64,000 nt of DNA from Lachnospiraceae bacterium. GTDB lineage: Bacteria > Bacillota > Clostridia > Lachnospirales > Lachnospiraceae. The stretch covers positions 110,523-174,522 of the forward strand of contig CABJBM010000013.1 in the NCBI GenBank assembly GCA_902363835.1, in the 5' to 3' direction. A program made the translations under genes and the position numbers. The notes below the pieces were generated by a model, which searched no databases, was not told where the DNA came from, and saw only the letters and a list, made by a program, of their open reading frames with translations. Below are positions 728-54,710 of this stretch, one piece after another (positions within the stretch are counted from its first letter, which is position 1; every line of letters begins with the position of its first letter).

Positions 728-831
728 CCTCTTTCCAGCCCATGCTTTCTGGGCATAAAGGTATACCCGAAGGGTGTTTCCTCTTTCCTGCCCATGCTTT
801 TTGGGCATAAAGGTATACCCGAAGGGTGTTT
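728..831. repeat. Two tandem copies of the dispersed palindromic element
   Basis: Two near-identical units of 52 bp follow each other. Each has one stem GCCCA...TGGGC around a TGCTTT loop and a second small stem ACCC-GAA-GGGT after GGTAT. They lie between the ftsZ terminator and the next small gene. The same unit, with a 51-bp period, recurs at 34.1, 37.5 and 53.8 kb, with diverged or partial versions at 35.8 and 50.3 kb. Confidence 0.85.
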
Positions 832-832
832 C

Positions 833-863
833 AAAAACAGGCAGGTTCATCGGAACCTGCCTG
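833..863 (-). terminator. Rho-independent terminator after ftsZ
   Basis: On the minus strand a perfect 10-bp stem AGGCAGGTTC / GAACCTGCCT with a four-base loop is followed by GTTTTTG. It lies about 20 bp after the ftsZ stop and ends the dcw transcription unit. Confidence 0.85.
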
Positions 864-883
864 AATATGTAATCTCATGAATT

Positions 884-52707: not shown

Positions 52708-53145
52708 TCATTGTTTTCCAGTGCTTCCATGGCCTCCCCGGTCCTCATGTCCCAGGATATCTGTTTCTTCAAAACACAAGGCAGGCTGATGCTCCATAAT
52801 GCGGAACTGGCAGATGCGGTCATTTACATGGATCACCGTATCCTTAAGGGCATAGGCCGGGAAAAACCACTGGTCATTGTCCCCGCAGTAAGTCTCGTCG
52901 ATCACCCCCATGCTGTTGGTCTGAATCACGCCGTAATTCTTAAAGGTGCTGCTCCTTGGAACCACATGGGCTTCAAACCCGGCCGGCAGTTCCATGGCAA
53001 TGCCCAATGGGATCAGCTTAAAATCACCGGCTTTCATCTCCACCTCTTCTGCAGCTCTTAAGTCAATCCAGTCGGATTTGCCGTCAATATAACGTAAACG
53101 TTCGATTTTATCATTAAAATATTTAATTCTTATGGTTTTTGTCAC
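52708..53145 (-). CDS. dut: dUTP diphosphatase (trimeric Dut-like)
   Basis: 145 aa. dUTPase motifs in order: SDWIDLRAAE (motif 1 with the Asp), VPRSSTFKNYGVIQTNSMGVID (motifs 2-3, written here only as key parts: PRSS and the catalytic Asp of GVID), RICQFRIM (motif 4) and RGGHGSTG (motif 5, the flexible P-loop-like tail). It hydrolyses dUTP to dUMP, keeping uracil out of DNA. The start is GTG with AGGAGG upstream. Within the family, its looped middle (YCGDNDQWFFPAYAL) is of the Firmicute type. Confidence 0.93.
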   Translation of the reverse strand: MTKTIRIKYFNDKIERLRYIDGKSDWIDLRAAEEVEMKAGDFKLIPLGIAMELPAGFEAHVVPRSSTFKNYGVIQTNSMGVIDETYCGDNDQWFFPAYALKDTVIHVNDRICQFRIMEHQPALCFEETDILGHEDRGGHGSTGKQ

Positions 53146-53155
53146 CTTTTTCCTC

Positions 53156-53803
53156 CTAAATGTTATTCACTTTATTATCTTCTGCCGGAATCAGATCACC
53201 GCTTTCGGAAAGCTCCTCTTCCACTTCCATGCGGATTTCAGCCGCAACCACCGGATCAGCCACCGGAAGATTCTGAGTGGAACCAATGCCGAATCTCCTT
53301 AAAAATTCCTCTGTGGTGGCAAACAATGCCGGACGGCCGGGCGCATCCAAACGCCCCACTTCGTATACCAGGTTGTATTCCACCAGCTTATTGACCGCAT
53401 GATCTGATTTGACGCCCCGTATCTTCTCAATTTCCAGCTTTGTCACAGGCTGTTTATAGGCTATGATGGACAGGGTTTCCAAAACCACATCCGTAAGAAC
53501 CTGTTTTTTAGGGGCAGATGCCACACGGATTAAATTCTCATAATACTCGGACCGTGTGCACATCTGGTAACTGTTCTCCAGTTCCAGGATCTGCATCCCC
53601 CTTTTGCCTGTATCATAACGTTTCATCAAACGGAGGACCGCCTCTTTTGCCGTTGCCTCATCCTGGCCGATGGCAGCTGCCAGAGCCTTAAGTTCAACAG
53701 AATTCCCCATGGTAAAAAGAACTGCCTCGATCACAGCTTCCCACGTTTTTTCTTCCTTTGTGCTCTTTTTCGGTCCCTCAACTAAAAGAGTTTCCTTATC
53801 CAT
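53156..53803 (-). CDS. scpB: Segregation and condensation protein ScpB
   Basis: 215 aa winged-helix protein that, with ScpA and SMC, forms the chromosome-condensing complex. Family segments: WEAVIEAVLFTMGNSVELKALAAAIG, ALETLSIIAYKQPVTK-like sequence (here VLETLSIIAYKQPVTKLEIE), IRGVKSDHAVNKLVE and GRPALFATTEEFLRRFG. The ATG overlaps the scpA end by 8 bp and has AGAGGAA upstream. A much longer in-frame opening exists only because it runs through the palindromic repeats of scpA and is not used. Confidence 0.95.
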   Translation of the reverse strand: MDKETLLVEGPKKSTKEEKTWEAVIEAVLFTMGNSVELKALAAAIGQDEATAKEAVLRLMKRYDTGKRGMQILELENSYQMCTRSEYYENLIRVASAPKKQVLTDVVLETLSIIAYKQPVTKLEIEKIRGVKSDHAVNKLVEYNLVYEVGRLDAPGRPALFATTEEFLRRFGIGSTQNLPVADPVVAAEIRMEVEEELSESGDLIPAEDNKVNNI

Positions 53804-54710
53804 TAATTTCCTCTTTCCTGCCCTGCATTTTGGGCATAAAGGTATCCCTGGAAGGGGTTTCCTCTTTCCCGCCCTGCTTTTTGGGCATAAAGGTATCCCT
53901 GGAAGGGGTTTCCTCTTCCCTGTCCTCTTTAAGATCCGACAAATCCAGTTCTCCGTCCTCTCCTTCCGGTTCCAGGGTTTCGATGAGCATATCATCAAAC
54001 AAATACTCCTGGGTCAGCCTGATCTTGCCGATCTTCATGAGCTCCAGAAGCGCTAAAAACGTCACAACAACAAGGGTCCGGTCCGGCTGCTTTTCAAGAA
54101 GGCCGCGGAATGAAAACTTCCGGTGTTCTCTGGCATAATCCATGACCGATTTTATCTTATCCTCCAGGCTTATGGATTCCCTCCGGATATTGCCGAACCG
54201 GCTTCGGATAGGGTCCACCCGGTCTGACTTTCGTTTTGTAACAGCCCGGAAAATTTCCTGGAGCTTTGCCAGGGTAAGCCCGTCAAGAAGCTTGTCCAAG
54301 TCCACCGGCGGCTCATACTTTGCCACCTCAGGCGGAAGGGAAGGAGGTTTGTACAGCAAACGGTCAGCCCCTATTTCCCGGTCTTTAAGCTCCTGGGACA
54401 TGTATTTGTAATATTTGTATTCCAGAAGGCGTGCAACAAGCTCTGCCCTTGGATCCTCTTCCTCGCCTTCCTCGTTGGTCTCCCTGGGAAGCAGCATGCG
54501 CGCCTTTATATCAATGAGAGTCGCAGCCATGACAAGAAACTCGCTGACAATGTTTAAATCCTCTGTTTCCATGTGATTTACATAGTCCAGATATTGCTCC
54601 GTAATCGTCGCAATGGGAATATCGTAGATATTCACCTTATTCTTGTCAATCAGATGAAGCAGCAGATCCAGCGGACCTTCAAAATTATCCAGTTTATAAG
54701 AGATTCCCAT
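53796..54710 (-). CDS. scpA: Segregation and condensation protein ScpA with a repeat-derived C-terminal tail
   Basis: 304 aa kleisin joining SMC heads. The N-terminal domain begins YKLDNFEGPLDLLLHLI with NKVNIYDIPI; the C-terminal winged helix ends near TQEYLFDDMLIETLE, where many ScpA proteins stop. Here about 55 more residues follow. They include two 17-residue tandem repeats, EETPSRDTFMPKKQGGK and EETPSRDTFMPKMQGRK, each encoded by one 51-bp palindromic element. GGAGG precedes the ATG of MGISYK. Whether the tail affects SMC binding is unknown. Confidence 0.95.
   Translation of the reverse strand: MGISYKLDNFEGPLDLLLHLIDKNKVNIYDIPIATITEQYLDYVNHMETEDLNIVSEFLVMAATLIDIKARMLLPRETNEEGEEEDPRAELVARLLEYKYYKYMSQELKDREIGADRLLYKPPSLPPEVAKYEPPVDLDKLLDGLTLAKLQEIFRAVTKRKSDRVDPIRSRFGNIRRESISLEDKIKSVMDYAREHRKFSFRGLLEKQPDRTLVVVTFLALLELMKIGKIRLTQEYLFDDMLIETLEPEGEDGELDLSDLKEDREEETPSRDTFMPKKQGGKEETPSRDTFMPKMQGRKEEING
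53811..53926. repeat. Two tandem palindromic elements inside scpA
   Basis: Two 51-bp units (stem GCCC at 53820 and 53871) with TGGGCATAAAGGTATCCCTGG in each and a short third remnant. They encode the repeated C-terminal peptides of ScpA. They are close to the 52-bp intergenic units at 0.73-0.83 kb but exactly a multiple of three in length. Confidence 0.9.

What the first reader, a model, noticed from the sequence alone, without database searches (positions are those of the whole stretch)
728..53926. Dispersed 51-bp double-hairpin element at six loci
The same unit, a GCCC(A)...(T)GGGC hairpin, then TAAAGGTAT and an ACCC/GGGT or GCCC/GGGC half-palindrome, occurs at 728-831 (two copies), 34088-34250 (three), 37458-37508 (one), 53811-53926 (two), and as diverged or partial forms at 35764-35808 and 50296-50375. 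Copies are often tandem at 51-52 bp. That density in 64 kb implies a large genomic family, probably a non-autonomous palindromic (REP/RPE-like) element. I know of no named element with this sequence in Clostridia, but cannot search.
Basis: seen in the sequence. Interest (0 to 1): 0.75.

Follow-up and report, generated by a model that had tools for sequence, protein, structure and literature searches.

The report
Mobile double-hairpin repeats at ribosome-binding sites
A short DNA repeat that can fold into two hairpins sits, in tens to over a hundred copies in some Clostridia genomes, just before the start of genes, apparently because it inserts into the ribosome-binding site and duplicates it, so the gene can keep working.

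Summary
The repeat is real and large. Its sense strand is the window's minus strand: hairpin I, linker ATACCNTTATG, hairpin II, purine tail ending GGAAA; 51-52 nt, often in tandem. Units lie at four of the six places named; the fifth is a longer variant and the sixth a different palindrome. Eight Lacrimispora-group genomes have 102-143 matches each; other subfamilies occur in the family. Compensatory changes support both hairpins. Arrays lie just upstream of a start codon, in gene orientation: 57 of 62, 30 of 31. Orthologous sites vary from none to four units, and several show duplication of about 7 nt of the Shine-Dalgarno-region target. One window copy is an in-frame 51-nt insertion in a diacylglycerol kinase gene, absent from 20 of 23 relatives. 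REP/RAYT is not supported: no Y1 transposase was found in 12 of 31 element-bearing genomes, two of them near-single-contig with over 140 matches. Best reading: a non-autonomous mobile element for which the ribosome-binding site is a safe harbour; its enzyme is unknown.

The parts
725..776 (-). unit 2 of a 2-unit array; its tail AGAGGAAA is directly followed by GGAG and an ATG at 711-713
777..828 (-). unit 1 of the same array (highest-scoring unit of the window)
34091..34140 (-). unit next to the start of the glutamate synthase gene (29521-34080)
34149..34191 (-). second unit of the array upstream of glutamate synthase
34194..34239 (-). third, diverged unit (22.5 bits)
37456..37506 (-). 51-nt in-frame insertion inside the diacylglycerol kinase gene (37105-38055); 20 of 23 orthologs lack it
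37456..37461 (-). right copy of the target duplication (GAGGAA)
37507..37512 (-). left copy of the target duplication (GAGGAG here; GAGGAA in G422)
50286..50363 (-). long variant with a third hairpin, directly upstream of the anaerobic ribonucleotide reductase gene (ORF call 47908-50292)
53807..53855 (-). unit at the scpA/scpB junction; 51-nt spacing, read in frame as part of the ScpA tail; its tail precedes the scpB start
53858..53906 (-). second unit at the scpA/scpB junction
35758..35808 (-). not a unit: a different dispersed palindrome (GCCCGGTGAAGCGGGGC)

Best explanation
It is a family of very small non-autonomous mobile elements. One unit is a core of about 45 nt (hairpin I, conserved linker, hairpin II, purine tail). 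It inserts in one orientation into purine-rich sites, roughly nnRGRAAA by eye, chiefly the Shine-Dalgarno region, and duplicates about 7 nt of target. The right-hand copy of the target stays next to the start codon, so the gene keeps its ribosome-binding site: the site is a safe harbour. Insertions elsewhere in genes are mostly lost; an occasional in-frame one survives (diacylglycerol kinase). Once in place, element plus target copy is multiplied and lost as a tandem unit by local duplication. Shown here: the family, its fold, its placement, sites with and without units, left/right end similarity that is specific to the locus, and homogeneity within arrays. Inferred: that an enzyme acting in trans makes new copies, that the hairpins mark the ends for it, and that placement reflects target choice plus selection. 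The enzyme is not identified.
For: Empty site: the DAGK insertion is absent from 20 of 23 orthologs of the genus; G422 has the full length, G423 and G424 an in-frame 30-nt remainder. Among 26 orthologous site clusters in four 400-kb stretches, 23 were alignable in all four genomes and had units in 1, 2, 3 or 4 of them at 4, 5, 8 and 6 clusters; at 12 of 26 the unit number differs between occupied genomes. Target duplication with locus letters: site 0, empty GGAGGTAACTATG versus GGAGGTA-element-GAGGTAACTATG; at site 65 left and right ends both end in AAGAAAA. Over 48 sites collapsed by orthology, left and right ends match at 5.46 of 7 positions versus 4.93 +/- 0.09 after permutation, 0 of 4000 reaching the observed mean. 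Placement: a start codon of an open frame within 60 nt downstream at 57 of 62 arrays (random positions 32%); ATG within 25 nt 77% versus 9.4%; 30 of 31 arrays in ten further genomes (random 38%). 0 of 73 arrays lie antisense in a called gene, although 1167 of 5142 RGGAAA motifs do. Ten downstream genes that I chose for a check are housekeeping genes of different pathways: mnmA, ispF, aroC, ispD, recF, pcrA, hpt, aspS, ysxC, mutS. Units of one array are 92.7% identical, units of different arrays in one genome 78.1%, between genomes 69.7%. Predicted exposure of the start region is the same with and without the element (0.57 vs 0.56, 75 arrays).
Against: No transposase or autonomous copy was found; a search for split halves around a gene in 2.46 Mb gave only three pairs, all within 20 nt. 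There are no terminal inverted repeats, unusual for a DDE-type MITE (recalled). Most right ends read GGAAA, which could be element-borne, so few sites are decisive alone; some left ends fit poorly, and at site 13 only G411 has the locus letters on both sides while G422 and G413 end in GAGGAAA/GAGGAAG. Shared base composition around each site could add to the left/right similarity. Several sites counted as without units hold remnants rather than clean empty sites (sites 3, 15, 56, 65). Homogeneity within a genome is uneven: 78.1% is mostly G001 (2789 of 3097 pairs), and G186 has 57.8%, below the between-genome mean. The DAGK insertion is patchy on a gene tree (at least three changes): repeated insertion, repeated precise loss or exchange between species. 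No movement was observed.
Confidence: 0.68

Rival explanations
1. A cis-acting leader RNA: the two hairpins before the Shine-Dalgarno sequence bind a protein or control mRNA decay or translation, and are kept by selection at many genes.
For: Orientation-locked placement before start codons; two hairpins with compensatory changes and a conserved linker; 6 of 23 fully alignable sites have units in all four genomes.
Against: Ten checked genes have no common pathway; presence and unit number vary between close relatives; locus-specific end similarity; no effect on predicted start accessibility; a copy inside a coding sequence. Only 5 of 326 paired cells are G-U, low for an RNA fold (my judgement).
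Confidence: 0.13
2. A REP-type element moved by a RAYT (Y1) transposase, or a relic of IS200/IS605.
For: Hairpins near both ends, no terminal inverted repeats, strong orientation bias.
Against: PF01797 not found in 12 of 31 element-bearing genomes, including G411 and G413 with 141 and 143 matches, and found in 10 of 17 genomes without a match to the element under the strict filter. The IS200 ends read in G001 are unlike the unit (part of that locus reads N). Target duplication is not expected for this chemistry (recalled).
Confidence: 0.05
3. Spread without a transposase: template switching or short-homology recombination between GGAAA-rich leader regions copies units from one leader to another, and tandem slippage does the rest.
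For: Target and element tail share GGAAA at most sites; strong homogeneity within arrays; no enzyme found.
Against: Right ends at sites 0 and 65 follow the target, not the usual tail, and site 66 suggests the same; sharp left border one base before hairpin I at many unrelated sites.
Confidence: 0.09
4. RNA-mediated, SINE-like insertion: a processed leader RNA ending in GGAAA primes on the pyrimidine strand of another Shine-Dalgarno region.
For: Fixed orientation, purine 3' tail complementary to the other strand of the target, target duplication, location in leaders.
Against: No reverse transcriptase (PF00078) found in G414 (122 matches) or G383 (35 matches); the duplication looks nearly fixed in length by eye.
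Confidence: 0.05

Closest known systems
Rickettsia palindromic elements (RPE)
   Same: Small structured repeat, many copies, one clear in-frame insertion in a protein gene (DAGK) and in-frame units in the ScpA tail.
   Different: 51-52 nt versus about 150 bp (PMC10969869, section 4.2); mostly before start codons rather than in reading frames; tandem arrays; target is the ribosome-binding region.
REP/BIME/REPIN with RAYT
   Same: Short palindromes, high copy number, clusters.
   Different: No consistent Y1 transposase, direct tandem orientation, placed before start codons, target duplication.
MITEs (RUP, Correia, ERIC and similar; from recall)
   Same: Small, non-autonomous, target-site duplication.
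   Different: No terminal inverted repeats; two independent hairpins instead; orientation and position locked to start codons.
Riboswitch or leader-RNA families of Rfam
   Same: Two-hairpin fold upstream of genes with covariation.
   Different: No Rfam 15 family matches at gathering score; unrelated genes; mobile behaviour.

Membership tests
REP/RAYT | cognate Y1 (RAYT) transposase in the genome | tested here: not met
   PF01797 not found in 12 of 31 element-bearing genomes, incl. G411, G413
REP/RAYT | 20-40 bp palindrome with a GTAG or CGTC tag | tested here: not met
   unit is 51-52 nt and the 38-copy alignment shows no such tag at a hairpin foot, by eye; definition from the title and abstract start of PMC3733652
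MITE | terminal inverted repeats | tested here: not met
   best 12-nt end match 6.68 vs 6.34 +/- 0.96 in shuffles, 38 copies
MITE | target-site duplication | tested here: met
   single sites vary in clarity (site 13 mixed)
MITE | autonomous parent element with shared ends | tested here: inconclusive
   no split-half element in 2.46 Mb; whole genomes not read through
Rickettsia palindromic element | in-frame insertion into protein genes with an open frame | tested here: met
   DAGK site, 51 nt, 20 of 23 orthologs empty
Rickettsia palindromic element | sequence similarity to known RPE families | not tested
   no RPE sequences were fetched
IS200/IS605-derived (PATE-like) | no target duplication; ends shared with a resident IS200/IS605 | tested here: not met
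   duplication supported; ends of the one IS200 type read in G001 differ
Structured leader RNA | compensatory base changes, placed upstream of genes | tested here: met
   34 double-change cells, 0 of 500 shuffles; slid controls 1-11 cells; the count of further pair types is not raised (8 vs 8.8)
Structured leader RNA | regulates the downstream gene | not testable with these tools
   needs expression data

The most novel reading that the evidence does not exclude
A mechanistically new kind of bacterial mobile element: its ends are two independent hairpins rather than inverted repeats, it depends on neither a Y1 transposase (none found in G411, G413) nor a resident reverse transcriptase (none found in G414), it is aimed at ribosome-binding sites, and it spares its host by leaving a duplicated Shine-Dalgarno sequence beside the start codon. 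It would be moved by an enzyme not yet recognised, acting on single-stranded DNA or RNA in transcribed leaders.
Probability: 0.28. Interest if true: 0.87.

Novelty: new variant of a known kind. Interest (0 to 1): 0.64.

Why it matters
In some genomes dozens of gene leaders, including those of housekeeping genes, carry a repeat whose presence and unit number change between sister species, so 5' leaders there would be under steady remodelling by a mobile element. A target that is regenerated next to the start codon would explain how insertion can be tolerated in front of such genes, a natural example of safe-harbour insertion. It also warns annotators: units read in frame add peptide segments (DAGK, ScpA) and shift start-codon calls.

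Tried and rejected
RAYT/Y1 partner and resident IS200 ends: no support. Reverse transcriptase as a common partner: not found in G414 and G383, below cut-off in G265. Terminal inverted repeats: none. Alternative helix GGGYAT/ATGCCC: pairs in 90.4% of cells but without one double change, and fails in the GGCC-type genomes. Split parent element: none in 2.46 Mb. Phage, plasmid and viral collections: no match. Rfam: none at gathering score; at a loose threshold only three sub-threshold matches to unrelated families in 600-950. Effect on start accessibility: none. One change on a gene tree for the DAGK insertion: not supported, at least three. Rows dropped: of the 39 pattern loci, ten whose titles give no Clostridia (L008, L010-L012, L014, L017, L019, L021, L031, L033) were set aside as chance; five of them had nhmmer hits of at most 25.1 bits, five none. 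A1 holds 50 of 75 hits (score, complete ends, distinct). Arrays with best score of 25 bits or less were dropped. The 38 copies of A2 were chosen by hand from fetched loci to spread over 19 genomes. For the end test, arrays without both ends were dropped first (81 kept; the number dropped was not printed), then 14 with an upstream remnant (67 left, 48 sites). Literature: nine searches listed nothing that from titles and abstract starts describes this element. Papers seen: PMC10969869 (passages, and section 13), PMC3733652 (listing and passages), PMC1590033 (listing and passages), PMC2229807 (listing only). Only open-licence papers are held, so absence from print is not shown.
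Full report
OBSERVATION. The window holds eight units at four places, one of them weak, and a longer variant at a fifth, all on the minus strand. Read in the sense direction a unit is (GGAAA)-C-ACCC-TNC-GGGT-ATACCTTTAT-GCCC-AAAAAGCAT-GGGC-AGGAAAGAGGAAA, 51-52 nt, repeated head to tail. nhmmer gives 90 hits in 1.66 Mb of window plus relatives and none in block-shuffled or reversed DNA. The form at 50296-50375 is the long variant with a third hairpin, which also occurs inside arrays of relatives; 35764-35808 carries only a palindrome like that third hairpin.

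DISTRIBUTION. No genome is held for the window. A pattern scan of one genome per species found 39 loci, many in Clostridium sp. Marseille-P2415 (G001) and Lacrimispora (Lacrimispora is Lachnospiraceae). The window's nearest relatives in the genus are G414, G413 and G422, 91.5-93.2% identical over 1585 nt around rpoD and 84-89% over longer matches. With a covariance model from 50 copies, matches per genome are 102 (G001) and 108 (G002) at E 0.01, 122-143 (G411, G413, G414, G422-G424) at E 0.001, and 3-34 in the other 17 genomes of the genus, so all 25 of the genus match. At most 150 candidates a genome were scored, so high counts are lower bounds. In the family 55 of 397 sampled genomes match at E 1e-3 (strict filters, 14 candidates each); in the order 11 of 392 at 1e-5. 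Distant members such as G381 (127 matches) have their own version of the stems. No match in viral contigs (exact pattern), plasmids or phages.

STRUCTURE. On 38 hand-chosen copies from 19 genomes the two-hairpin fold pairs in 95.3% of cells, with 34 double-change cells against 7.2 +/- 2.1 in shuffles and 0 of 500 reaching it; slid versions give 1-11. Pairs with a change on both sides are 4 versus 2.8 (5 of 500), and further pair types are not raised (8 versus 8.8, 477 of 500). Column pair 33-49 appears as C-G, G-C and U-A, pair 35-47 as C-G, U-A and A-U. The copies were found with a model that contained this fold, which leans the count towards it; but the 50 copies of that model lack nearly all of these changes. 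Only 5 of 326 paired cells are G-U, so a DNA hairpin is at least as likely as an RNA one (judgement). The most conserved parts are the linker ATACCNTTATG, the inner stem bases and the purine tail.

PLACEMENT. 57 of 62 arrays in stretches of G001, G002 and the window have a start codon of an open frame of at least 80 codons within 60 nt downstream (4000 random positions: 31.9%); ATG within 25 nt in 77% versus 9.4%; on the antisense side 7 of 62. The stretches had been picked around high-scoring matches. 30 of 31 arrays in ten other genomes agree (frames of at least 60 codons within 45 nt, 65 where a hit was cut short; random at 45 nt 38%, antisense 4 of 31). Genes are simple open-frame calls, so single assignments can be wrong: 41 of 73 arrays fall within 30 nt upstream of a called start, 14 in sense frames (some because a start codon was called inside the element, as at window 725-828), 18 in other intergenic DNA and 0 antisense in a gene, while RGGAAA motifs number 222, 3142, 611 and 1167 of 5142. 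The 73 include orthologs of one another. Ten downstream genes that I chose, having recognised them, are housekeeping genes without a common pathway by NCBIfam.

MOBILITY. The copy at 37456-37506 is a 51-nt in-frame insertion in a diacylglycerol kinase gene. Of 23 orthologs with both flanks in the genus, 20 are empty, G422 has the full length, and G423 and G424 keep a 30-nt in-frame remainder. Against solved relatives (2qv7, 4wrr) the extra residues fall in an alignment gap, compatible with a surface loop (inference). On a gene tree the four occupied genomes need three changes, so gain, loss or exchange recurred. In four syntenic 400-kb stretches 26 site clusters were found; 23 were alignable in all four genomes and had units in 1, 2, 3 or 4 genomes at 4, 5, 8 and 6 clusters; at 12 of 26 the unit number differs between occupied genomes. 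'Without units' there means no profile hit: alignments show clean empty sites at sites 0, 13, 17, 26, 62 and 63, but remnants at sites 3, 15, 56 and 65 in some genomes. Sites 17 and 18 have a unit in G411 alone.

TARGET DUPLICATION. Site 0: the empty G414 reads GGAGGTAACTATG; G411 reads GGAGGTA, element, GAGGTAACTATG, and the junctions of the four-unit array in G413 read GAGGTGA, GAGGTAA, AAGGTAG, GAGGTAG and GAGGTAA, the letters of that locus, instead of the usual GAGGAAA. At site 65 in G422 both ends end in AAGAAAA. Site 66 (left AATAAAA, right GAAAAAA, empty GATAAAA in G413) is suggestive. Site 13 is mixed: GAGGGA on both sides in G411 but GAGGAAA or GAGGAAG at the right in G422 and G413. 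With 81 arrays having both ends, 67 after removing 14 with an upstream remnant, collapsed to 48 sites, left and right 7-mers agree at 5.46 positions versus 4.93 +/- 0.09 when permuted (0 of 4000). Against this: the common end GAGGAAA leaves most single sites uninformative, some left ends match poorly, and local base composition could contribute.

ARRAYS. Units of one array are 92.7% identical (84 pairs), units of different arrays of one genome 78.1% (2789 of 3097 pairs are from G001), of different genomes 69.7%; G186 is an exception at 57.8% within the genome (3 pairs). Arrays therefore appear to grow by local duplication of element plus target copy. In fold prediction the element neither hides nor exposes the start region (0.57 with, 0.56 without, 0.56 shuffled, 75 arrays).

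ENZYME. Y1 transposases were not found in 8 of 19 element-bearing genomes and 4 of 12, among them G411 and G413, and were found in 10 of 17 genomes without an element match. Ends of one IS200 type in G001 are unlike the unit. Reverse transcriptase PF00078 was not found in G414 and G383 and is only sub-threshold in G265, of 21 element-bearing genomes. No terminal inverted repeats, no split parent in 2.46 Mb. The mover is unknown.

CONCLUSION. What it works like: a MITE that uses the ribosome-binding site as safe harbour. Membership in a named family is not claimed. Nothing describing such an element appeared in the listings of nine literature searches of open-licence papers.

Noticed in passing
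window 35758-35808; L090, G413, G422 places: A second dispersed palindrome, ATGCCCGGTGAAGCGGGGCA, at several places followed by GCTGTGAGCA, in relatives; similar to the third hairpin of the long variant, so the two families may have exchanged parts.
   Followed up: partly
L028 (G006); L032 has a similar title: A record titled Paenibacillaceae MAG lies in G006, which falls in the genus of G001 and has 34 matches; the title looks wrong.
   Followed up: no
L022 (G005): Emergencia sp. 1XD21-10 has 3 matches, one before a gene starting like that of Sporofaciens L005; either a wider host range or a contaminant contig.
   Followed up: no
G408:C33:264017-264417: Seven matches nearly end to end, the longest run I saw listed.
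   Followed up: no
L076 2751-2854 and 5292-5395: The same array and downstream gene start (MAERFARIII...) occur twice 2.5 kb apart in G001, a local duplication or assembly artefact.
   Followed up: no
window 91-198: 27-nt tandem repeat (repeat finder D3), perhaps coding repeats.
   Followed up: no
L090, two places 3.8 kb apart listed: An identical stretch of about 105 nt with the second palindrome is printed twice for this G001 stretch.
   Followed up: no
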